This document shows, one piece after another, positions 13,275-23,911 of a stretch of DNA of 64,000 nucleotides. Origin of the DNA: Microvirga aerophila. Lineage in GTDB: Bacteria > Pseudomonadota > Alphaproteobacteria > Rhizobiales > Beijerinckiaceae. The stretch spans positions 124,001 to 188,000 of the forward strand of contig NZ_QOIO01000003.1 in NCBI RefSeq assembly GCF_003332305.1, given 5' to 3'. Each line of letters begins with the position of its first letter. Within the stretch, counting starts at the first letter, position 1. A program made the translations under genes and the position numbers. The notes under the pieces were generated by a model. The model ran no database searches. It worked only from the letters and a program-made list of their open reading frames with translations, and had not been told where the DNA came from.

Positions 13275-13299
13275 AACGACCGCATTGTGGTCAGGTTCC
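13275..13299 (-). promoter_or_regulatory. Sigma-EcfG-type promoter of the amidoligase operon
   Basis: Read on the minus strand, GGAAC (13299-13295), 16 bases, then CGTT (13278-13275) matches the alphaproteobacterial general-stress consensus exactly. The amidoligase ATG lies 32 bases downstream, leaving a short leader with its ribosome site. Confidence 0.75.
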
Positions 13300-13389
13300 G
13301 CCACGCTGGAAATGCCCCGATCTTTGCCGGCATGGTGTGGCCTTTCGGGCGCTCTTCGGGCTCACTTTGGACGCGACGCATTGTTCGGC

Positions 13390-13426
13390 GCGGAAAACCG
13401 GGTCCACTTTTCCGCACGATGCGCTA
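13390..13426. repeat. Dispersed imperfect palindrome
   Basis: GCGGAAAA opposes TTTTCCGC around a CCGGGTCCAC centre, followed by ACGATGCGCTA. It resembles the copy at 45711-45752 (GCGAAAA, GTGGCTCCGG centre, then GATGCTCTA), read in the opposite order. Such elements are scattered between genes in Rhizobiales genomes. Confidence 0.55.
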
Positions 13427-13440
13427 CAAGCGCATCCATC

Positions 13441-14844
13441 ATGGACACGACCACCTCGATCACGAGCCCCCAAACGCTGGAACGCGCCGCCTGGACCGCC
13501 GAACTGCGCGCCATGATGGCGCTCGGTTGGCCTCTCATCCTCACCAACGTGGCCCAGAACGCCCTGATGACGACGGACGTCATCCTGATGGGGTGGCTCG
13601 GCTCTGGCGCTCTGGCGGCCGGCGCGCTTGGCACGAATCTCTACTTCGCGTTCCTGATCTTCGGGATCGGCCTCGTCAGCGCGACCTCGCCCCTGATCGC
13701 CGAAGAGCTCGGGCGCAAGCGTCATTCCGTGCGCGAGGTGCGTCGCACGGTCCGGCAGGGATTCTGGGCAGCGATCACGGTCGCGGTGCCGATCTGGATC
13801 GTGGCCTGGAACGGGGAGGCGCTTCTCCTGGCCATGGGGCAGGAGCCCCTCCTGGCTCACGAGGCCGGGGAATACATGCGCGCCCTGCAATGGAGCCTGC
13901 TGCCGTTCCTGTTCTATCTCGTTCTGCGCTCGTTCCTGTCGGCCCTCGAGCGGCCGGGCTGGGCCCTCGTGATCGGCCTCCTGGCCGTGCCGGTCAATCT
14001 CGCGGCCGCCTATTGCCTGATGTTCGGCACGTTCGGGCTCCCGGAGTTCGGCCTCGTCGGAGCCGGATACGGGACGGTGATCTCCAGCACCTTCATGTTC
14101 GTCGCGCTCGCTGGCGTGATCAGTTACGACCGACAGCTCAGGCGATATCATCTGTTTGGACGCTTTTGGCGGCCCGACTGGCCGCGTTACGCCACCCTGT
14201 GGCGCATCGGCGTGCCCATCGGCCTGACACTCGCCTTCGAGGTGACGATCTTCAACGCGGCGGCGCTGTTCATGTGACGCATCGGCGCGAATGAACTCGC
14301 GGCCCACGCGATCGCCCTGCAGATCGCATCCTTCTGCTTCATGGTGCCCTTCAGCTTCGGGCAGGCCGTCACGGTCCGCGTTGGGCGCGCCTTCGGAGCG
14401 CGGGATCCCGATGCGGTCACCCGCGCCGGCTGGACCGCGTTCGTTCTTGGCGTCGGCTTCATGGTGTTCACGGCGATGCTTATGCTGTTTGTGCCCCATC
14501 TGCTGCTCGGCGCATTTCTCGACCTGAGCGATCCGAAGAATGCGCCCGTGATCGGCTTTGCGGTCTCGTTCCTGGTGCTCGCCGCCCTGTTCCAATTAGT
14601 GGATGGCGCTCAGGCGGTCGGTGCGGGCATGCTGCGGGGGCTTCAGGACACGCGCATCCCGATGTTCTACGCGGCCTTCGGCTATTGGGGCGTGGGCCTT
14701 CCGCTCGGCGTAGCGCTGGCCTTCGGCACGAGCCTGCGCGGCGTGGGCATCTGGATCGGCCTAGCCACAGGACTTGCGGTGGTGGCCGGGCTGATGCTCT
14801 GGCGCTGGGTGCGCCGGGACAAACTCGGGCTGGTGGCCGCTTAG
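13441..14844 (+). pseudogene. MATE-family multidrug efflux gene interrupted by an in-frame TGA
   Basis: One frame from ATG 13441 to TAG 14844 encodes a 467-residue MATE (NorM/DinF-like) exporter with the usual twelve hydrophobic segments, for example LRAMMALGWPLILTNVAQNA at the start. The frame is broken only by TGA at 14275-14277, after EVTIFNAAALFM. The frame then continues as [19 protein letters not shown], the expected next segment. MATE proteins usually have Gly at that point, so GGA-to-TGA is the simplest change. The truncated product would lack the whole second half. Sequencing error is possible. It is divergent from the amidoligase operon and convergent with ispH. Confidence 0.85.
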
Positions 14845-14850
14845 ACCTAT

Positions 14851-15819
14851 TCAGCAGGCTCTCGCTTGCCAGGGGACGAGGTGCGACAGGTCGACGGGGG
14901 CGAAGCGCGTTCCCTCCTCGGTCACGCGCACCTCCTCCACGGTGACGCGCCGCCACCGGGCCAGCTGGCTCAGCGCCTCCTGCACGAGCTCCTCAGGCGC
15001 GGATGCGCCTGCCGTGAGGCCGATCACCGCCGCCCCATTGATGAACGATAGGGTCAGATCGCGCGGATCCTGCATGAGCAGGGCAGGGCGGCCCTCGCTC
15101 TCGGCCACCTCGCGCAGGCGCGCGGTGTTCGACGAATTGCGCGCGCCGCAAACGATGACCCGGTCCGCCCGCTTGGCGATGACGCGAACCGCCATCTGGC
15201 GGTTCTGGGTCGCGTAGCAGATCGTCCTAGTGTCGGGCCCCTGGATCGCCGGAAAGCGCCGCTTCAGGGCCTCGATGATTTCCCGCGTGTCGTCCACGGA
15301 GAGCGTGGTCTGGGTCACATAGGCAAGATGCTCAGGGTTTTCGACCGCAACCGTGAGAGCTTCCGCCACGGTGGCGACCACATGAACCGTGCCGTCGATC
15401 CTACCCGTAGTGCCCTCGACCTCCACATGGCCACGATGCCCGATGACGATGACCTCGCGGCCGGCCCTGGCGTGGCGCTGCCCTTCGCGATGAACCCGGC
15501 GCACCAGCGGGCACGTGGCGTCGAGCACCGAAAGCCCCCGCCGAACCGCTTCGCGCTCCACCGCTTCGGGGACGCCGTGGGCGCTGAAGATGGCCACGGC
15601 CCCATCGGGGATCTCCGACAGATCGTCCACGAAAACTGCGCCCTGCCGCTTCAGGTTCTCCACCACGCGGCCGTTATGGACGATCTCATGGCGCACATAG
15701 ACGGGCTTGCCGGTCTGCGCGAGCGCATCCTCTACAGCCCGGATCGCCCGCTCGACACCGGCGCAGAAGCCGCGTGGCGACGAAAGAAGAACCTTTAAGG
15801 CGGCTTGATCCGGGCTCAT
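14851..15819 (-). CDS. ispH: 4-hydroxy-3-methylbut-2-enyl diphosphate reductase
   Basis: A 322-residue IspH (LytB), last enzyme of the MEP pathway, making IPP and DMAPP. The three iron-sulfur cysteines are present in SSPRGFCAGVERAI, VLDATCPLVRRVH and TICYATQNRQ. AHGVP, TQTTLS and the C-terminal TAGASAPEELVQ are also seen. The start is ATG 15819, overlapping the hpnE stop as ATGA. It is the last gene of the carotenoid operon, so supply of C5 precursors is co-transcribed with their use. Confidence 0.95.
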   Translation of the reverse strand: MSPDQAALKVLLSSPRGFCAGVERAIRAVEDALAQTGKPVYVRHEIVHNGRVVENLKRQGAVFVDDLSEIPDGAVAIFSAHGVPEAVEREAVRRGLSVLDATCPLVRRVHREGQRHARAGREVIVIGHRGHVEVEGTTGRIDGTVHVVATVAEALTVAVENPEHLAYVTQTTLSVDDTREIIEALKRRFPAIQGPDTRTICYATQNRQMAVRVIAKRADRVIVCGARNSSNTARLREVAESEGRPALLMQDPRDLTLSFINGAAVIGLTAGASAPEELVQEALSQLARWRRVTVEEVRVTEEGTRFAPVDLSHLVPWQARAC

Positions 15820-17102
15820 GCGGCGTGCTCCACCCGCTGCGGGTGCGGAGCCGCAGCAGGCAGTCGCGTCCGGTAGGCATGCTGAAGGGCCATGATGGCT
15901 TCCTGTCCGGCGATGACGGCGCTCTCGATGGTGGCCGGCAGGGAGCCAATCCAGTCTCCCGCCAGCGCCACGTTGGCGAGTGGCAGGAGCGGCGGTTGCG
16001 GCAGGGGGCATGCAGCCTGCCGGATCGTAGCGCGTCTTTCCTTCACCACGCGGGTTTCGGGCTGACGGCTCGCCGCTGCATCAAGGCCGAGCGATCCCAG
16101 GACGGGGGCGATCTCGCGCCATATGGCTGAGGCGATTTCGTTGGAGTTGCGATCCACAAGCTCTCCGGCGGCGGACACGGTGACGCTGACATGGTTGTCA
16201 CGGATCAGAACCCACTGGGCGAGGGTCCCGACGAAGCCCAGGAACCGAGGCCGGTCGAGGCCGCAGATGCGGTAATGGATGTTGAGAATCGGCTCGAACC
16301 GGTCCGGAACCGGGAGGTTGGGCATCAGCCGCGCGATCTCCCACGGAGGAAGCGCCAGGACGACGCGGTCATCCGGACCCAGCGCCACCGTGCGGTCCGT
16401 CAAGGCAAGCCCTATGGCGCGGTCGTGACCGGTCAACACGCAGCGCAGGCGCTGGCCCGTGAGAAGCTGCGCTCCCCTGGCCTGCAACGTATCCAGGGCC
16501 GGCCGGACGAGATCCTCGTCGAGCCCGTGGCGCGCTACCAGGAGTTTCCCGGCCCCAGGCCGGACGAGACGGCGCAGGGCGAAGCCAAGCCGCTGGGAGG
16601 ATGCTTCCATGGCGGGTGTGTTGAGCACCGCAATGGTCAAGGGCTCGATCAGGCTCTTCATGATCGGCCTGTCGCCGATGAGCTCGGCGACAGGCCGGTC
16701 GGAGGAGCAGAGGGCGAGGCGCAAGAGGCGTCCAAGATCGCCCAGGCCCAATCCTCTCGGACGTCGCGACGGAAACAGCCAGGACCAGGGCGAGAGACCG
16801 ATGCGACTGGTCTGTTCGGTCCCGGCGTCGTGAATGGGGAGGCCGTCCGGTTCCGGCTCGATCCAGAGCTGTCTTGCGCCAACCGTCTCGAGGAACCCGA
16901 TAGCGCGACGATTGGCCGTGAACAGCACATGGGTGCCGTTGTCATGGGTGAAGCCGCCCGCCGGATAGAGTGTGCGGCAGCGTCCTCCCGCCTGCGGCGC
17001 TGCCTCGTAGAGGATTGCTTCTCCGCCCTCTGCGGTTGCCGCGAGCGCGGCGCTCAGGCCTGCAATCCCGGCCCCAACGATATGTGTTCGCCTCGCCCTC
17101 AT
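15816..17102 (-). CDS. hpnE: Hydroxysqualene dehydroxylase
   Basis: A 428-residue FAD-dependent amine-oxidase-like protein. The start is ATG 17102, overlapping the preceding stop as ATGA. The N-terminal dinucleotide site is HIVGAGIAGLSAALAA, followed by EAAPQAGGRCRT; the C-terminal FAD motif is NVALAGDWIGSLPATIESAV. HpnE reduces hydroxysqualene to squalene. Its position directly after the HpnC-HpnD fusion fixes this assignment over other carotenoid oxidases. Longer upstream starts would lie inside the preceding gene and add an arginine- and proline-rich tail, so they were rejected. Confidence 0.9.
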   Translation of the reverse strand: MRARRTHIVGAGIAGLSAALAATAEGGEAILYEAAPQAGGRCRTLYPAGGFTHDNGTHVLFTANRRAIGFLETVGARQLWIEPEPDGLPIHDAGTEQTSRIGLSPWSWLFPSRRPRGLGLGDLGRLLRLALCSSDRPVAELIGDRPIMKSLIEPLTIAVLNTPAMEASSQRLGFALRRLVRPGAGKLLVARHGLDEDLVRPALDTLQARGAQLLTGQRLRCVLTGHDRAIGLALTDRTVALGPDDRVVLALPPWEIARLMPNLPVPDRFEPILNIHYRICGLDRPRFLGFVGTLAQWVLIRDNHVSVTVSAAGELVDRNSNEIASAIWREIAPVLGSLGLDAAASRQPETRVVKERRATIRQAACPLPQPPLLPLANVALAGDWIGSLPATIESAVIAGQEAIMALQHAYRTRLPAAAPHPQRVEHAA

Positions 17103-18757
17103 GCGGCCCTCACTGCCAGACCTATGAGCTGCAGCCGATCCACCGCGGTCAGCTGCAGCTTGCCGGACCTCGTTCCCCACCCGCGCGCCACGAGACGGTC
17201 CAGGATGCGGCGGTAACTCTCCATCATCAGGACGGCCGGCTTGAGGCTCGACCTGTCGAGCCGCCTCAGGGCCTCGTCCGCTGCGGCAAAGCCCGCGCGG
17301 GCCTCGTCCGCCAGATTTTCGCACACGCGGGCAAAGCGCGGGTCTGACGCCAGCACGCTTGCCGGCGCATCGTGCAGGCCGTGGCGGGCAAGGCGCGACA
17401 GGGGAATGTAGACGCGCTCCAGCGCGGCATCCTCGTCGATATCGCGCAGGATGTTCACGAGCTGGAGCGTGTGTCCTAGTTCCTGCGCGAAGCTTTGCGC
17501 CGTCGGGGCGCCGAAGACGTGGATCGACAGGACGCCGACCGATCCGGCGACGCGGCGGCCATACGTGTTCAGGGCGTGATCGTCAGCCAGCCGAACGCGC
17601 TCCTGGCAATCCGTCTCCATCCCGTCGAGGAGCGCATGGCATTCCCCCAGCGGCAGCCGGAAGAGGCTCGACGCGCGGGCAAGCTCGCGCCCGATCGGCG
17701 TTTCGGGCGCACGATGCAGACGGTCGATCTCCCTGCGCCACTCGTTGAGGAAGCGGCGCTTCTCCCATGACGGCAGCGCTCCGTCCGCAATGTCGTCAAC
17801 CTCCCGGCAGAACGCATAAACGGCGTGGATGGCGCGGCGCCGATCGGCCGAGAGGCTTTTCATGCCGAGCCGGAAGGACGAGCCCGAGCGCCGGACGGCC
17901 GCCGCCGTGATATCCGTGTCGCGACTCGATGCAGGTCGCGCAGCGCCGGCAAGCCCCCGCAAAAACGCCATGGCGGCGTCGGCCCGGGAAATGCGGACCC
18001 GCGTCAGTGCCGGGTCGCAGCTGCGCAAACGCCGACTCAGGCGTTGGGCCAACGCGAGGGTCGCGATGCTTTGCGCCCGCAGGCGCCTGTCTTGAAGGCG
18101 CTCGGGCAGAACTCGCGCGCGGTCGATCAGCCCATCGACCCGGTCCAGAACGCCGTTCAGAACAGCACGGCGCAGGGATGCATTCGAAGGTTCGAAGAAG
18201 GCAGTCTCGCCGCCCGCGACCTGCAGCCAGGAGACCGGCAGGTAGATGCGGTCGAGGCGCTTTTGGTCAGGCTGGCAATCCTGCACGTGGTTGAGAATTT
18301 GAAGCGCCGTGCAGAGTGCATCGGCGGGGCCGTGGGCGGTTTCGCTTTCACCATGAAGGCGCAGGAGAAAGCGTCCGACCGGATTGGCCGAGACGGCGCA
18401 GTAATCGGTGAGCTCGGCCCAATCCGCATAGCGGGTTTTCACGGCGTCCCGGCGAAAGGCGCGGACCAGGTCCCGCGCCTCCACGAGGCCTGCACCATAG
18501 CGCCGATCGACGGCATGGAGTTGCGCCGCTTGCGGGATCTTGGGATCGCCTTCGACCAGGGCCTGTTCAAGGCTGTCGAGACGAGCAAGTTTCTCGTCGG
18601 CCTTCAGGTCGGGCGCGTCGGCGATGTCGTCCGCCATGCGGGCAAAGCGATAGAACGCGAGCACGGCATCGCGATGCGCGCGGGAGAGCACGAGCGACGC
18701 GACGGGGAAACTTTCGTCCCGTGGACGTTTAGATGCCTGCATTTGGCCCATCTGCAT
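17099..18757 (-). CDS. hpnC-hpnD: HpnC-HpnD fusion: hydroxysqualene synthase plus presqualene diphosphate synthase
   Basis: A 552-residue protein made of two complete squalene/phytoene-synthase domains. Residues about 10-275 match HpnC: ESFPVASLVLSR, first Asp-rich motif DDIAD at 43-47, second motif QDCQPD near 160, then RIYLPVSWL. Residues about 290-552 match HpnD: SGSSFRLGMKSL, DDIAD at 321-325, and NILRDIDEDAALERVYIP. HpnD condenses two FPP to presqualene diphosphate, and HpnC converts it to hydroxysqualene. These are normally two adjacent genes. No stop or frameshift lies between the halves, and all four metal-binding motifs are intact. The start at ATG 18757 is four bases after the glycosyltransferase stop. 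Confidence 0.92.
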   Translation of the reverse strand: MQMGQMQASKRPRDESFPVASLVLSRAHRDAVLAFYRFARMADDIADAPDLKADEKLARLDSLEQALVEGDPKIPQAAQLHAVDRRYGAGLVEARDLVRAFRRDAVKTRYADWAELTDYCAVSANPVGRFLLRLHGESETAHGPADALCTALQILNHVQDCQPDQKRLDRIYLPVSWLQVAGGETAFFEPSNASLRRAVLNGVLDRVDGLIDRARVLPERLQDRRLRAQSIATLALAQRLSRRLRSCDPALTRVRISRADAAMAFLRGLAGAARPASSRDTDITAAAVRRSGSSFRLGMKSLSADRRRAIHAVYAFCREVDDIADGALPSWEKRRFLNEWRREIDRLHRAPETPIGRELARASSLFRLPLGECHALLDGMETDCQERVRLADDHALNTYGRRVAGSVGVLSIHVFGAPTAQSFAQELGHTLQLVNILRDIDEDAALERVYIPLSRLARHGLHDAPASVLASDPRFARVCENLADEARAGFAAADEALRRLDRSSLKPAVLMMESYRRILDRLVARGWGTRSGKLQLTAVDRLQLIGLAVRAA

Positions 18758-18761
18758 GGCG

Positions 18762-19865
18762 TCACCCTACGGGATAAAGCCTGCCCTTCCACCCGGCGCG
18801 GCGCTTTCCGCCGATCCGCAGGAGCACGCTCCATTGAATCGCGAGGCCGACCAGCATGGTGAAAGGATGCAGGGGAATGGACAAGGGATTTTCCCGGGTG
18901 GCGACCGTCACGATCGCGCGGGTGCTCAAGGACACCAGGGCCGCCAGGAGGATCGGCAGCGTCGGGGTCATCACCAGCAGCCCGAACGGCAGTACATGAC
19001 CTCCGAGCAGCAGGACGGTCCAGATCGGCAGACCCGCGGGCGTCGCCATCCCCTCATGGGCATTTTTGGCAAAGCCCGCCCAGGCGTCGCCGAAGCGCGC
19101 ATACATGCGGCACGAGGCCAACCCGTCTCCGGGCATCAGATCGGTCATGATCCCCTTGCGCCGGAAGAGCCGAGCAAGCTGGATTCCGTCATGGAGAAGA
19201 GACCGGATCGCCGCGTGACCGCCGGCTGCCCGGTAGGCCTCGCGCTCCACCAGAACAAGTTGGCCGCAGGCGGCGCCAAGGCCCGGATCCGGGGAGCGGC
19301 GCATGAGCCTCATAGGCAGATAGCCGACGAGAAGGAAATTGATCGTCGGCACGATGAGCAACTCGCCGAGGGAGCGCATGACCTGCCGCGGGACCGCGCT
19401 CACGAGCTTCGCATTGCCGGATTGCGCATGTCCCGCCAGCGCCGCAGCGGCATGCGGGGCCAAACGCACATCCGCATCCATGAAGAGAAAATGCGTGCCT
19501 GCCGCCGCTTCCGACAGATGATGACAGGCATGGACCTTGCCGGTCCAGCCGCTCGCGAGGGGCGGCGCCGTGAGCAGCCGAACGCGCGCGTCGCGCCGGG
19601 CGTAGGTGCCCACGATGGCGGCGGTCTCATCCGTCGAGCCGTCGTCCATTACAAGGATTTCGACCGGCACGCCCGTGCTCGCAAGCGCCGCTTCGAGCGC
19701 CGGCCCAATGTTCGCGCCTTCGTTACGGGCCGGAATCAGGATCGACACCAGGGTGTCGGAGGCCGGCCGGTGCTGCGGTGTCGCGCGCAAGGTTTTCAGG
19801 TTGATCACTGCCAGAATAGCGGGCAGCGCCGCGAGAGCCAACAGGATGAACCCAAGGATCGTCAT
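18762..19865 (-). CDS. Membrane glycosyltransferase family 2 (CrtQ-like)
   Basis: A 367-residue protein with an N-terminal membrane helix (ILGFILLALAALPAILAVI), a cytoplasmic GT2 domain and C-terminal hydrophobic helices. GT2 motifs: VSILIPARNEGANI, VMDDGSTDETA, HFLFMDADVRL (DxD) and a later HDGIQLARLFRRKG. Length and topology match CrtQ-type enzymes that glucosylate C30 carotenoid acids. The start overlaps the acyltransferase stop as ATGA. It is predicted to add a sugar to a carotenoid carboxylate; other lipid acceptors cannot be excluded. Confidence 0.82.
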   Translation of the reverse strand: MTILGFILLALAALPAILAVINLKTLRATPQHRPASDTLVSILIPARNEGANIGPALEAALASTGVPVEILVMDDGSTDETAAIVGTYARRDARVRLLTAPPLASGWTGKVHACHHLSEAAAGTHFLFMDADVRLAPHAAAALAGHAQSGNAKLVSAVPRQVMRSLGELLIVPTINFLLVGYLPMRLMRRSPDPGLGAACGQLVLVEREAYRAAGGHAAIRSLLHDGIQLARLFRRKGIMTDLMPGDGLASCRMYARFGDAWAGFAKNAHEGMATPAGLPIWTVLLLGGHVLPFGLLVMTPTLPILLAALVSLSTRAIVTVATRENPLSIPLHPFTMLVGLAIQWSVLLRIGGKRRAGWKGRLYPVG

Positions 19866-20692
19866 GGGGCGCGCCCCTGGTGCGATGGATCGAAGGCGCG
19901 TCCGCGCAGGGCTGCCGACAAGCGACGCCAGGTGTCATAGACGCCGCCGATGCCGGCGCGTCCCTCGATCAGCGAGTGGAACCTGCCGGGATCCCGGCTC
20001 TGCACATCGGCGCTCAAGCCGTCGAGGGTTGCCGTAAGCCTGCTCTCCAGGCGCTGTATGCGCTCGGTGCGCGGCAGATCGAGAAGCTCCTGCGCCTGCA
20101 TGGGAGCCCCGAAGGCGATGCAGGCCTCCGCGCCGCGCTCCGCCCAGAAGCTGTATTCGATCCCGAGCGGCAGAATGGTGCAGCCAGGGGCGCGCTCGAT
20201 CAGATGAGCGATACCGGATCTGAGCCCGACGGGACGCTCCCTCACATCGCTGAATCGACCCTGGGCGGTGATCCACAGGGCGCGATTCGGAGCAGACAGG
20301 ATTTCCTCGCCGGCTTTGAGAAACGCCGCGGCTCCGCGGGCCGTGCCAAGATCGACCCCGAAGGCTCCTATCCGGCCAAAGACGCCGTATTGCTTCAGCA
20401 TCGCGGCATCGATCGGCGCATAGCTTTCGTGTTCCGGGAACAGGCGGTCGGCCGCGAGAATGTAAATCGCCGCGTCCCACCAGGACGGATGGTTGGAATA
20501 GACGATAACAGGTCCAGGCGGCATGGATGCGGGCATGCCCCACCGAGCCACCCGCAGGGCGTTCATGTGGCGTGTGAAGTAGCGCCCGAAATAGCCGACC
20601 ATGAAGCGGTGGATAGGGACAGAGCGGCGCGCGACGGGAGAGACTTCCTGTCTGGAAGCGGCTTCGCCCGTCCGGTTGGCCATTGTCTTCAA
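19862..20692 (-). CDS. PlsC-like acyltransferase of the carotenoid cluster
   Basis: About 276 residues. The catalytic HX4D motif is YSNHPSWWDAAIY. A later ITAQGRFSDVRERP stretch sits where PlsC enzymes have FPEGTR, so motif III is divergent. The start is either TTG 20692, which overlaps the preceding stop as TTGA, or ATG 20683; neither has a strong ribosome site. By context it could acylate the sugar of a glycosyl-carotenoid, the role CrtO has in staphyloxanthin synthesis. It is clearly different from the housekeeping PlsC at 52798. Confidence 0.8.
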   Translation of the reverse strand: MKTMANRTGEAASRQEVSPVARRSVPIHRFMVGYFGRYFTRHMNALRVARWGMPASMPPGPVIVYSNHPSWWDAAIYILAADRLFPEHESYAPIDAAMLKQYGVFGRIGAFGVDLGTARGAAAFLKAGEEILSAPNRALWITAQGRFSDVRERPVGLRSGIAHLIERAPGCTILPLGIEYSFWAERGAEACIAFGAPMQAQELLDLPRTERIQRLESRLTATLDGLSADVQSRDPGRFHSLIEGRAGIGGVYDTWRRLSAALRGRAFDPSHQGRAP

Positions 20693-22224
20693 GAGACTTT
20701 CCGCATGGTGGCAGCCTTGACGTCCGCATCAAGCGCATCGGCTGCGATCCAGCCGGACATCATCACCATCGGCATGCCAGGCCCCGGGTGAGCCGCCCCG
20801 CCCGCCAGATAGAGGCCTTGCACCTGCCGGCTGCGGTTGCCCGGCTTGAAGGCTCCCATGAACTTGCCATGGCTCGCTAGCCCATAGATTGCGCCGTTCA
20901 AAACCTTGTAGCGATCATGAATGTCCTGCGGGGTAAGATGCCGTTCGACCACGATGCGGCTCTCGATGTCCTCCATGCCGGCCGTGCGTTTCAGCTTGTC
21001 GAGAATGACCTGGCGATAGGCCGGAAACATTTGCGACCAATCGTGATGCGGGCGCAGGTACGGCGTATGGACCAGAACGTAGAGGGCTTCGCCGCCCTCC
21101 GGCGCAACGCTCGCGTCCGTGACGGCCGGGGCCGCGATGTAGCACGTCGGGTCAGGCGCGGGCTCGCCCTTGCGATAGATGAAATCGAACTCCTCCTCGG
21201 GATCGCGCGAGAACACGAAATCGTGGTGGAGCAGGTGGTCGTAGCGCTGTTTGAGTCCGAGATAGAGGACGACGCCCGAACAGGCGGGTTCGAAATCCTT
21301 CCTGGCGTAGTGCTCGCCCACGTCTCCGCCCACGAGTTCCTGATAGGTGCGGATGGAATCCATGTTGGACACGATGCTGTCATAGCGCGCCACATCCCTG
21401 TTCGACGTGACGATGCCGGTCGCCGCGCCGCTCTCGATGTGGATGGACTGCACGTCCGTCTCGGGCCGGAAAATGACGCCGAGTTCGCCTGCGAGCTTGA
21501 TCAGGGCCTCGACCACCGCGCGGGTGCCGCCCATCGGGTACCAGACGCCCTCGGCGGCCTGCATATGGGCGATGGCGCACAGGACCGCGGGCGATCCGTA
21601 GGGCGACGAGCCCACATACTGGGTGAAATGGTCGAGCATCTGCGCCAAGCGCTCGTCCTTGACCTTGGACCGGATGGTGCCGGCCACCGATGACCCCATC
21701 CGCAGGGAAAGCACATCCCGGAGCGTGCCCGGGTTCATGTTCGCCCGGATGTTGATGGTGTCGAACAGGTCTTCGACCGGCTTCCAGAAGAAGAAACGGT
21801 TCGAGATGTTGTGCAGGTTCTCGGACAGCGCCTGAAACTGCCGGTATCCTTCGCCCGCCTTCGTGCCGGGCGCGAAGCGGTCCATGGCGTCCGCCATGGC
21901 GGCGATATCCTCTTGCAGGTCGATGCGGGAGCCGTCGTCGAAGAAGCACCGCCATTGCGGATCGAGACGCACGAGATCGAGATAATCCGAGAGGTTTCGC
22001 CCCGCCTCCGAGAAGATGCGCTCCAGAACGCGGGGCACAGTGAGGATCGTGGGACCCATGTCGAAGCGAAAACCATCCTCGTGCAGCACCGCGGCCTTGC
22101 CGCCGATCCAGGGATTCTTGTCGTAGAGCGTCACCGCATGACCGCGCGCCGCCGAGACGCAGGCCGCCGCCAACCCGCCGAGTCCACCGCCGATCACGGC
22201 GACTGAAGCTGTCTGAGCGCTCAA
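20689..22224 (-). CDS. CrtI/CrtN-family carotenoid desaturase or oxygenase, second copy (CrtP-like)
   Basis: A 511-residue FAD-dependent protein. TTG 22224 is preferred because GGGAGG lies six bases upstream; ATG 22260 has no clear ribosome site. N-terminal FAD site VAVIGGGLGGLAAACVSAAR, then NPWIGGKAAV and FDMGPTILTVP. The C-terminal motif is GLYLAGGAAHPGPGMPMVMM, typical of the family. Two such paralogues in one C30 cluster usually divide the work: one desaturates, the other oxidises terminal methyls or continues desaturation. Which does which cannot be settled from sequence alone. Confidence 0.85.
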   Translation of the reverse strand: MSAQTASVAVIGGGLGGLAAACVSAARGHAVTLYDKNPWIGGKAAVLHEDGFRFDMGPTILTVPRVLERIFSEAGRNLSDYLDLVRLDPQWRCFFDDGSRIDLQEDIAAMADAMDRFAPGTKAGEGYRQFQALSENLHNISNRFFFWKPVEDLFDTINIRANMNPGTLRDVLSLRMGSSVAGTIRSKVKDERLAQMLDHFTQYVGSSPYGSPAVLCAIAHMQAAEGVWYPMGGTRAVVEALIKLAGELGVIFRPETDVQSIHIESGAATGIVTSNRDVARYDSIVSNMDSIRTYQELVGGDVGEHYARKDFEPACSGVVLYLGLKQRYDHLLHHDFVFSRDPEEEFDFIYRKGEPAPDPTCYIAAPAVTDASVAPEGGEALYVLVHTPYLRPHHDWSQMFPAYRQVILDKLKRTAGMEDIESRIVVERHLTPQDIHDRYKVLNGAIYGLASHGKFMGAFKPGNRSRQVQGLYLAGGAAHPGPGMPMVMMSGWIAADALDADVKAATMRKVS

Positions 22225-22360
22225 GGCAATCCTCCCGCAGGGCATTCGGATGCCGGTCATCCGCGCCCAGGTTCTGTGATCATGGTTCTAGGAAGGGCAG
22301 GGGCCACTTCAAGGCGAGAGCGGACCGATCGAGCCTGAAGGGATCCCATCTGCGTCCCTG

Positions 22361-23911
22361 TCAGAGGGCGGCTTCGCCGACGGCGCCGGCCGCCGGTTTC
22401 CGCTTCCGTGTTCCAGCCCGGCGACGCTCCCTGTCCTCCAGGAGGAGCCTCGCGGTGATGCGGGCTCCCTCGAAGATCACCGGAAGGCCGCTGCCGGGAT
22501 GCGTGCCGCCGCCCACAAGATAGACGTTGCGGCCGAAACGGTTGTGGGGCCGGAAGTAGAGCATCTGGGTCAGGTTGTGGGCGAGGTTGAAGGTTGCGCC
22601 CTCGAAGACCGCGAATTCGTCCTGCCACCCTTTCGGGGTCACCACCCGCTCGAAGCGGATGCGGCTTTCGATGTCGTGGAGACCCAGAAGCTTCAGGCGC
22701 TCGAGGATGATCCCCCGGAAGCGCGACGCCTCCCGGGCCCAATCGACGGGACAGCGCAGGTTCGGCACCGGCGCCAGAACATAGAGGCTGGTATGTTGCT
22801 CGGGCGCGAGGGAAGCGTCGGTCGCACCCGCATGCTGCACGTAGATCGAAGGCTCGTCGGACAGGATGCCGTCCGTAATCTCGCGGATATTGCGCTCATA
22901 ATCCCGGGACAGAAGGATCGTGTGATGGGCGAGATCGCCCACGCCGCCCTCAATGCCGAGATAGAGCATGAAGGTCGAACAGGAGAGCTTCGCGCGGTCG
23001 AGCTTCTTGTTCCGCCAGCGCGGGCGCATGGCCTCGGGCACGAGGCGGCGCATGGCGTGGCCGAAATCCCCGTTCACTACCACGGAGCCCGCCGCGAAGC
23101 GTTCGCCTCCGGCCTCTATTCCGACGGCCTCGCCGCCCTCGTAGAGGATGCGCTCGACAGGGGAACCGAGACGGATGTCGACGCCCATCTTGCGGGCCAC
23201 GTTCGCCATTGCTTCCGAGACGGCGCCGCAGCCGCCGACCGGGTGATAGACGCCGTGCTCGTATTCGAGGAAGGAGAGGATCGTGAACAGGCTCGGGCAT
23301 TGGAACGGCGACATGCCGAGATATTTCGTCTGGAACGAGAATGCCAGGCGCACCCGGGGATCGGCGAAGTAGCGCTTGAGATCGCCGTCGACGGTGGAGA
23401 AGGGCCGAAGCTTCGGAAGCGCCGCCAGCATCGCGGGCGACACGAGGTCGGCCGGACTCGAGAAGCCTTGTTCGAGAACGGGCCGGAAGGCTTCGAGCTT
23501 GGCTCGGTTGTCCTCCAGGAAACGACGGACGTTTCCGGCGTCCGCCGGCGCGATGCGCGCAATCTCCTGTTCGAGCCGCTGAAGATCAGCCGTTGCGCGG
23601 ATCTCTCCGCCGCCCTCGAACACCAGGTGATATTGCGGGTCGAGCCGCTCCAACGTCACGTGGTCCTCGAGCCTCTCGCCGCAGGCCTCGAAGATGTCGC
23701 GCAGGACGCGTGGGTAAAGGAAGAAGGTCGGGCCGATATCGAACTTGTATCCGCCCTCGGCCGTGATGGTTCTGGTGCGTCCGCCGACCGCATGTTCCCG
23801 CTCGAACACCGTCACCGGAATCCCCTCGCGGGCCAACAACATGGCGGCCGCAAGCCCACCCGGTCCTGCTCCGACGATGGCGACACGCGATGACGGAGAA
23901 GGGTTCAGCAT
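22361..23911 (-). CDS. CrtI/CrtN-family carotenoid desaturase, first gene of the operon
   Basis: A 516-residue FAD-dependent protein starting at ATG 23911, with GAGG nine bases upstream. N-terminal site VAIVGAGPGGLAAAMLLARE, then HAVGGRTRTI and FDIGPTFFLYPRVL; C-terminal motif VYLVGGGTHPGSGLPVIFEG. It belongs with phytoene and diapophytoene desaturases. With squalene-forming enzymes downstream, the likely substrate is a C30 chain (squalene or dehydrosqualene) rather than C40 phytoene. No CrtB or CrtE gene is present in the window. It leads a leftward operon of seven genes. Confidence 0.87.
   Translation of the reverse strand: MLNPSPSSRVAIVGAGPGGLAAAMLLAREGIPVTVFEREHAVGGRTRTITAEGGYKFDIGPTFFLYPRVLRDIFEACGERLEDHVTLERLDPQYHLVFEGGGEIRATADLQRLEQEIARIAPADAGNVRRFLEDNRAKLEAFRPVLEQGFSSPADLVSPAMLAALPKLRPFSTVDGDLKRYFADPRVRLAFSFQTKYLGMSPFQCPSLFTILSFLEYEHGVYHPVGGCGAVSEAMANVARKMGVDIRLGSPVERILYEGGEAVGIEAGGERFAAGSVVVNGDFGHAMRRLVPEAMRPRWRNKKLDRAKLSCSTFMLYLGIEGGVGDLAHHTILLSRDYERNIREITDGILSDEPSIYVQHAGATDASLAPEQHTSLYVLAPVPNLRCPVDWAREASRFRGIILERLKLLGLHDIESRIRFERVVTPKGWQDEFAVFEGATFNLAHNLTQMLYFRPHNRFGRNVYLVGGGTHPGSGLPVIFEGARITARLLLEDRERRRAGTRKRKPAAGAVGEAAL

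What the first reader, a model, noticed from the sequence alone, without database searches (positions are those of the whole stretch)
14851..23911. Seven-gene operon for a squalene-based, glycosylated and acylated C30 carotenoid
Seen: one leftward run of two CrtI/CrtN-type oxidases, a PlsC-like acyltransferase, a CrtQ-like GT2, HpnC-HpnD, HpnE and IspH, with nearly all junctions overlapping by four bases. Known: HpnC/D/E make squalene; C30 carotenoids are built from squalene in some bacteria; CrtP, CrtQ and CrtO finish staphyloxanthin-type pigments. Inference: the operon is a near-complete path from IPP/DMAPP to a carotenoid glycosyl ester, lacking only FPP synthase and an aldehyde dehydrogenase. 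The pigment may be new.
Basis: partly seen in the sequence, partly recalled or inferred. Interest (0 to 1): 0.72.

Follow-up and report, generated by a model that had tools for sequence, protein, structure and literature searches.

The report
Microvirga operon for squalene-derived pink pigment
A Microvirga bacterium carries a seven-gene operon predicted to turn simple isoprenoid units into squalene and then into a pink C30 carotenoid that likely bears a sugar and a fatty acid, much like the known Methylobacterium pigment; the genome also holds, elsewhere, a gene that is likely the aldehyde-oxidising enzyme the operon lacks.

Summary
In detail: one leftward run, 23911-14851, encodes CrtN, CrtP, a PlsC-type acyltransferase, a GT2, an HpnC-HpnD fusion, HpnE and a second IspH. 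The genome has no hopene-cyclase match and no phytoene synthase, so its squalene most likely feeds a C30 carotenoid, not hopanoids or a C40 pigment. The gene order stands in 32 of 33 Microvirga genomes with CrtN and CrtP. HpnC-HpnD fusions are also in print (PMC5462960). What I add: a coniferyl-aldehyde-dehydrogenase-type gene on another contig is present in 33 of 33 operon-bearing and 2 of 15 operon-free genomes; homologues sit beside crt genes in six genomes. It is the best candidate for the missing step in this genus. And 27 of 33 operons carry a methyltransferase that this window lacks. Verdict: real, well explained, new variant of a known kind, moderate interest.

The parts
22361..23911 (-). 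CrtN-type desaturase, 516 aa: predicted to desaturate squalene towards 4,4'-diapolycopene
   Evidence: TIGR02734 505.8 bits; groups with CrtN of Azospirillum and Methylobacterium-like clusters (100/100), weakly (74/64) with staphylococcal CrtN, apart from CrtI
20689..22260 (-). CrtP-type oxidase, up to 523 aa: predicted to oxidise terminal methyls to aldehydes
   Evidence: TIGR02734 410 bits; CrtP side of the tree 95/98 (with the one CrtD row), 70-81% identical to Azospirillum and Methylobacterium-like CrtP
19862..20692 (-). PlsC-type acyltransferase, predicted to acylate the sugar
   Evidence: PF01553 25.4 bits over cut-off 23; HX4D; 62% identical to the acyltransferase next to CrtP in a Methylobacterium-like genome
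18762..19865 (-). GT2 glycosyltransferase, predicted carotenoid-acid glucosyltransferase
   Evidence: PF00535 72 bits; 57% to the Methylobacterium-like GT, 26% (E 4e-28) to the GT of an S. warneri pigment gene set
17099..18757 (-). HpnC-HpnD fusion, 552 aa: predicted FPP to presqualene diphosphate (HpnD half) to hydroxysqualene (HpnC half)
   Evidence: TIGR03464 residues 11-269, TIGR03465 residues 288-545; at least two DxxxD motifs in each half
15816..17102 (-). HpnE, 428 aa: predicted hydroxysqualene to squalene
   Evidence: TIGR03467 217 bits, below its 283-bit cut-off but the best family; start at ATGA overlap
14851..15819 (-). second IspH (LytB), 322 aa: predicted to raise IPP/DMAPP supply
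   Evidence: TIGR00216 303.8 bits; the other IspH is on C174
22261..22360 (-). 100-base gap where 27 of 33 operon-bearing genomes hold a methyltransferase gene; empty here

Best explanation
This is a single operon predicted to make a squalene-derived (C30) carotenoid that is likely glycosylated and acylated, the Microvirga version of the pathway shown in Methylobacterium and Azospirillum. Predicted steps: the second IspH raises precursor supply; the HpnC-HpnD fusion joins two FPP to presqualene diphosphate and converts it to hydroxysqualene; HpnE makes squalene; CrtN desaturates it; CrtP oxidises chain ends to aldehydes; an aldehyde dehydrogenase encoded elsewhere (C152:88975-90390, coniferyl-aldehyde-dehydrogenase type) likely oxidises these to acids; the GT2 adds glucose and the PlsC-type enzyme a fatty acid. 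The most likely product is an acyl-glucosyl ester of 4,4'-diapolycopene-4,4'-dioic acid. Shown here: gene content, order, conservation, no match to hopene cyclase or phytoene synthase, co-occurrence of the aldehyde dehydrogenase. Inferred: all enzyme activities and the product.
For: Families and anatomy. Own genome: no match to the hopene cyclase model; the only SQS_PSY besides the fusion is a ~285-aa protein, of a kind found once in each of the 48 genus genomes whether or not they carry the operon (NDUFAF6-like by recall). Gene order CrtN-(MT)-CrtP-AT-GT2-HpnCD-HpnE-IspH in 32 of 33 CrtN/CrtP-bearing genus members, the 33rd (G334) lacking only IspH there. At least two IspH in 32 of 33 operon genomes (in G334 the second is near the hopene cyclase); 11 of 15 operon-free genomes have one. 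Published genetics: GT and acyltransferase deletions and their intermediates in M. extorquens AM1 (PMC10448405; Results and Discussion read); in A. brasilense deletion of crtNPOQ abolishes pigment and accumulates squalene, deletion of hpnCDE abolishes pigment and leaves no squalene peak (PMC13274349, passages read). Aldehyde dehydrogenase: over 300 bits in 33 of 33 operon genomes and 2 of 15 others, next best match 137.7 bits; inserted between the same two genes in 6 of 6 operon genomes looked at, and those genes adjoin without it in 7 of 7 operon-free genomes where the site was found (three more stretches did not hold the site).
Against: No chemistry or expression data for this organism. A published study names the pink pigment of Microvirga sesbaniae zeaxanthin, a C40 compound, with 'crtBI' genes (PMC11356035, passages read). 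HpnE is below its curated cut-off. Aldehyde dehydrogenase: outside the genus the link weakens. Of 24 of 199 family genomes with a CrtP over 800 bits, 8 have a match at E 1e-60 and 16 do not (8 Methylobacterium-like, 4 g151, 3 Salinarimonas-type, 1 g156), and 34 of the 42 genomes with a match have no such CrtP; eight class-level relatives (51-59%) had no crt gene on the fetched stretch (3-20 kb); the enzyme beside the A. oryzae crt genes is only 30-33% identical. On the species tree only 7 supported independent pairs exist: same way 5.8 on average, opposite 0, median p 0.031, range 0.031-0.0625. CrtN's grouping with staphylococcal CrtN is weak (74/64), and the one CrtD row lies with the CrtP side on a long branch.
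Confidence: 0.85

Rival explanations
1. The operon makes squalene for hopanoids or sterols, and the two oxidases act on something minor.
For: HpnC, HpnD and HpnE are the hopanoid-pathway squalene enzymes; separate hpnC and hpnD copies beside a hopene cyclase occur in G298, G313 and G339.
Against: No hopene cyclase match in this genome, and none over the cut-off in 31 of 33 operon genomes (one of them, G341, has a 24-bit match). G313 keeps a separate hopanoid set besides the fused set.
Confidence: 0.03
2. It makes a C40 carotenoid (lycopene or zeaxanthin type) as reported for Microvirga sesbaniae.
For: Pigment of M. sesbaniae assigned as zeaxanthin by an MS peak at 569.3 (PMC11356035); one genus member, G310, does have a CrtI-type gene beside a CrtB-like one.
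Against: No CrtB-like synthase in this genome; oxidases are not with CrtI; no cyclase or hydroxylase gene in the operon (lycopene cyclase elsewhere in the genome was not searched).
Confidence: 0.05
3. The pathway stops at another oxidation state, or CrtP itself makes the acid, so that the unlinked aldehyde dehydrogenase is unrelated (for example a lignin-aldehyde catabolic enzyme whose distribution follows the operon by lifestyle).
For: NCBI names its relatives coniferyl aldehyde dehydrogenase; 16 of 24 family genomes with CrtP lack it at E 1e-60.
Against: 33 of 33 against 2 of 15 in the genus; the two operons that lie at another place (G313, and G315 on a plasmid) carry a linked homologue and no second one over 300 bits; linked homologues also in G193, G418, G476, G372.
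Confidence: 0.35

Closest known systems
Methylobacterium (Methylorubrum) extorquens AM1 C30 carotenoid pathway (PMC10448405)
   Same: Squalene route by HpnC/D/E; CrtN and CrtP; GT and PlsC-type (lysophospholipid) acyltransferase next to CrtP; product known: 4-[2-O-11Z-octadecenoyl-beta-glucopyranosyl]-4,4'-diapolycopenedioic acid.
   Different: There the genes are not in one locus and hpnCDE lie with the hopene cyclase; HpnC and HpnD are separate; no IspH in the cluster is mentioned in the sections I read; its aldehyde dehydrogenase was not found. Here all is one operon with a fused HpnCD and no hopene cyclase match in the genome.
Azospirillum brasilense crtNPOQ + aldH and hpnCDE loci (PMC13274349)
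   Same: Same tailoring set, squalene intermediate shown by deletion.
   Different: Two loci; in A. oryzae the aldehyde dehydrogenase beside crtN is only 30-33% identical to the Microvirga candidate; the A. brasilense one was not compared.
Staphyloxanthin operon crtOPQMN (gene roles recalled and from PMC10448405)
   Same: CrtN, CrtP, CrtQ-like logic of desaturation, oxidation, glycosylation, acylation.
   Different: Uses CrtM (diapophytoene), not HpnCDE; its CrtO acyltransferase is unrelated to the one here (no match at E 10).
HpnCD fusions of Acidobacteria SD2, Actinobacteria and Rhodospirillum centenum (PMC5462960, passages)
   Same: One gene about twice the size of hpnC or hpnD.
   Different: There reported in a study of hopanoid producers; here in a carotenoid operon of a genome without hopene cyclase match.

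Membership tests
Squalene-route C30 carotenoid acyl-glycoside clusters (Methylobacterium/Azospirillum type) | HpnC, HpnD and HpnE as source of squalene | tested here: met
   (HpnE below curated cut-off but best family)
Squalene-route C30 carotenoid acyl-glycoside clusters (Methylobacterium/Azospirillum type) | CrtN-type and CrtP-type oxidases, not C40 CrtI | tested here: met
   both in clades with Azospirillum and Methylobacterium-like proteins at 100/100
Squalene-route C30 carotenoid acyl-glycoside clusters (Methylobacterium/Azospirillum type) | GT and PlsC-type acyltransferase next to CrtP | tested here: met
Squalene-route C30 carotenoid acyl-glycoside clusters (Methylobacterium/Azospirillum type) | aldehyde dehydrogenase acting on the C30 aldehyde | tested here: inconclusive
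   candidate by co-occurrence and by linkage in relatives only
Squalene-route C30 carotenoid acyl-glycoside clusters (Methylobacterium/Azospirillum type) | C30 acyl-glucosyl product | not testable with these tools
   needs LC-MS/NMR
Squalene-route C30 carotenoid acyl-glycoside clusters (Methylobacterium/Azospirillum type) | FPP synthase supplying the route | not tested
   not searched
Staphyloxanthin operon | CrtM diapophytoene synthase | tested here: not met
   only the HpnCD fusion and one genus-wide SQS_PSY protein
Staphyloxanthin operon | CrtO-type acyltransferase | tested here: not met
   no BLAST match at E 10 to the S. xylosus CDS annotated as CrtO (390 bases, so perhaps short)
C40 carotenoid cluster | CrtB phytoene synthase | tested here: not met
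Hopanoid (hpn) cluster | squalene-hopene cyclase | tested here: not met
   0 matches in G000

The most novel reading that the evidence does not exclude
The pink colour of Microvirga is a C30 acyl-glucosyl ester of diapolycopenedioic acid and the zeaxanthin assignment in the genus is wrong; a coniferyl-aldehyde-dehydrogenase-type enzyme is the missing aldehyde oxidase of the pathway in this genus; and the 27 of 33 operons with an extra methyltransferase make an undescribed mixed diester (methyl at one end, acyl-glucose at the other), which this window's species has lost or never had. Squalene in these bacteria is then a pure pigment intermediate, freed from hopanoids, with its first two enzymes fused and its own IspH.
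Probability: 0.35. Interest if true: 0.58.

Novelty: new variant of a known kind. Interest (0 to 1): 0.4.

Why it matters
It gives a compact operon for an antioxidant C30 pigment class, useful for expression in another host, and it names a concrete gene for the aldehyde oxidation step, a step whose enzyme a knockout study in M. extorquens looked for and did not find (PMC10448405; the Methylobacterium-like genomes sampled here lack this gene, so theirs is another). It also offers a natural contrast (operons with and without a methyltransferase) for working out how the ends of the molecule are decorated, and suggests that the published C40 pigment call in Microvirga needs rechecking.

Tried and rejected
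Hopanoid reading: rejected, no hopene cyclase match. C40 reading: rejected for this genome. 'HpnCD fusion is new': rejected after finding it in print (PMC5462960). 'The unlinked aldehyde dehydrogenase serves the whole family of clusters': rejected, 16 of 24 family genomes with CrtP lack it and class-level relatives are not linked to crt genes on the stretches fetched. The first species tree was built with some rows on the wrong strand and the first oxidase tree held a wrong reading frame; both are discarded for (from I keep only the Fisher p, which uses no tree). The tree leaves out the G372 pair and three further family rows (one of them the wrong frame) that one search had. Promoter and terminator scan: nothing above the shuffles. 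Genome-collection scan with the fusion gave only two loci. The two key papers on the squalene route (PNAS 2022, Mol Microbiol 2021) are not held; I know them only through other papers' words. Not done: structure prediction, FPP synthase search, lycopene cyclase search.
Full report
WHAT IS THERE. On the minus strand, 23911 to 14851, seven genes follow one another: CrtN, CrtP, a PlsC-type acyltransferase (AT), a GT2 glycosyltransferase, an HpnC-HpnD fusion, HpnE and IspH. Four of six junctions overlap by four bases, one has a 4-base and one a 100-base gap. The HpnC and HpnD models each match one half of a single 552-aa frame, over their cut-offs, and each half keeps at least two DxxxD motifs. 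Upstream stands a divergent RlpA gene; downstream a convergent gene that I read as a MATE transporter (no family call).

WHERE IT IS FROM. The window is G000:C108:124001-188000. So the genus is Microvirga.

WHAT ELSE THE GENOME HAS. No match to the squalene-hopene cyclase model. SQS_PSY: besides the fusion only one ~285-aa protein, between genes that I read as TrmFO and SecF; each of the 48 genus genomes has such a gene, operon or not; I recall this as the NDUFAF6-like group, not a carotenoid enzyme. IspH: two copies, one in the operon. FPP synthase and lycopene cyclase were not searched.

CONSERVATION. Of 48 genus genomes, 33 have both a CrtN and a CrtP over the TIGR02734 cut-off (a 34th, G310, has a single CrtI-type gene beside a CrtB-like one). 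All 33 have a full-length fused HpnCD; G318 has the fusion without crt genes; G342 and G325 show broken remains. The order is CrtN-(MT)-CrtP-AT-GT2-HpnCD-HpnE-IspH in 32 of 33; G334 lacks IspH there. The flanking RlpA and MATE genes are seen on the same stretch in 28 of 33, RlpA alone in 3, neither in 2 (G313, G315). Among 297 genomes drawn from the order, the fusion matched over its length in one unbroken frame in G000 and G193, and with one stop inside in G212 and G183. Eight of nine g4 genomes sampled, Methylobacterium-like by cluster layout (g4 is unnamed), have CrtP-AT-GT2, with no HpnCD on the stretches fetched.

OXIDASES. In a tree of 25 proteins, the window's CrtN and CrtP fall in two 100/100 clades with Azospirillum and Methylobacterium-like proteins. 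The CrtP side also holds staphylococcal CrtP (95/98, together with the single long-branched CrtD row); the CrtN clade's union with staphylococcal CrtN is weak (74/64); four CrtI form their own clade (100/99). The names CrtN and CrtP of the staphylococcal rows are mine, from gene order; the records say phytoene desaturase family and FAD-dependent oxidoreductase.

TAILORING. In M. extorquens AM1, deletion of META1p3663 left diapolycopenedioic acid, deletion of META1p3664 left its glucosyl ester among other peaks, and the product is an acyl-glucosyl ester (PMC10448405; Results and Discussion read). The window's GT2 and AT are 57 and 62% identical to the corresponding pair of an unnamed Methylobacterium-like genome (G117) and 53 and 48% to those of A. 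oryzae; the GT is 26% identical to a staphylococcal GT, and the AT has no match to CrtO. An HX4D pattern is seen in 52 of 53 AT-like frames from the loci fetched (M. roseola is in twice), one of them (HYAPLDA) doubtful. Azospirillum deletions show squalene as the intermediate (PMC13274349, passages).

THE MISSING ALDEHYDE DEHYDROGENASE. G193's operon is followed by an aldehyde dehydrogenase. Used as query over 48 genus genomes it finds a match over 300 bits in 33 of 33 operon genomes and in 2 of 15 others (G310, G298); the next match is 137.7 bits. Fisher p 5e-10 (table only) ignores kinship; on a two-gene species tree the operon changes 11 times, and in 7 supported independent pairs the enzyme goes the same way in 5.8 on average, never the other way, median p 0.031. 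The two exceptions are 47-48% identical to the window genome's protein and 61% to each other, against 70-74% for five genus members compared; one operon species, M. pudoricolor, is at 62% (P0354). In G313 and G315, whose operons lie at another place, the homologue is beside the operon and is the only one over 300 bits; in the other 31 it is not on the operon's stretch. In G000, G297, G301, G308, G312 and G314 it sits between an ABC ATPase and a sensor kinase gene (my reading of both); in G306, G323, G325, G328, G331, G340 and G343 those two genes adjoin without it; the G298, G310 and G342 stretches did not hold the site. Homologues directly follow the GT in G418, G476 and G372. Against: of 24 of 199 family genomes with a CrtP over 800 bits, 16 (8 g4, 4 g151, 3 g139, 1 g156) have none at E 1e-60, while 34 of the 42 family genomes with one have no such CrtP; eight class-level relatives show no crt gene on the stretches fetched, one of them only 3 kb; NCBI calls the group coniferyl aldehyde dehydrogenase. 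I put the role at about 0.6 for this genus and do not extend it to Methylobacterium.

METHYLTRANSFERASE. 27 of 33 operons hold a gene of about 356-392 aa between crtN and crtP. Of six scanned, five match methyltransferase domain PF13649 at or over its cut-off; the sixth (L075) matched no Pfam family. None of the 15 operon-free genomes has it at E 1e-20; five operon genomes have no match and this one only a 77-bit match on another contig. Mo et al. suggest an unknown methyltransferase in M. extorquens PA1. A methyl ester at one end is my inference.

IN PRINT. Searches for Microvirga with carotenoid and squalene (1 paper), with carotenoid (25 of 47 listed) and for any two of Microvirga, C30, crtN (10 of 62 listed) list no title or abstract about this operon; two of these papers were opened for passages. 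PMC11356035 assigns M. sesbaniae pigment to zeaxanthin with crtBI; M. sesbaniae has an orthologue of the aldehyde dehydrogenase (P0304, 70%), which fits a C30 operon there, untested. Its 842-base 'crtB' is close in size to the genus-wide SQS_PSY gene; that this is the same gene is a guess.

VERDICT. The operon is real and well explained. Gene fusion, squalene route and acyl-glycoside product are each known; their union in one operon, with its own IspH and in genomes mostly without hopene cyclase, is a new variant. The pigment is probably not new.

Noticed in passing
window 13285-14844 (+): The MATE-like transporter gene next to the operon reads as two frames of 330 and 167 aa, while relatives have one uninterrupted gene of roughly 470-550 aa; it may be broken here or an assembly slip.
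   Followed up: no
L073:7133-8230 and equivalents in 27 of 33 operons: Methyltransferase-like gene between crtN and crtP in most Microvirga operons, missing in this window.
   Followed up: partly
L085 (G310:C152:60000-78000): One genus member has a CrtI-type gene beside a CrtB-like one and no C30 operon.
   Followed up: partly
L079 (G342), L086 (G325), L076 (G318): Broken or partial remains of the operon; these genomes also lack the aldehyde dehydrogenase over 300 bits.
   Followed up: partly
P0110: A 946-aa protein from an Azospirillaceae record carries GT2 domains together with the HpnC-HpnD match in one chain, which links a glycosyltransferase with squalene synthesis.
   Followed up: no
G298, G313, G318, G334, G339 (L081, L083, L084): In the five species with a hopene cyclase over cut-off, an extra IspH stands within about 3 kb of the cyclase, so an extra IspH goes with squalene use in general.
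   Followed up: partly
L149 / L212 (Microvirga ossetica plasmid): The whole operon with a divergent aldehyde dehydrogenase lies on a plasmid, so the pathway may move as a unit.
   Followed up: partly
L208:15990-17102 (Azospirillum oryzae): A sulfotransferase gene follows the GT in the crt cluster, hinting at a sulfated pigment.
   Followed up: no
L001 (G000:C90): The genus-wide small SQS_PSY protein may have been mistaken for CrtB in published Microvirga genomes; M. brassicacearum is also reported with a 'phytoene synthase' terpene cluster (PMC6780248, passages).
   Followed up: partly
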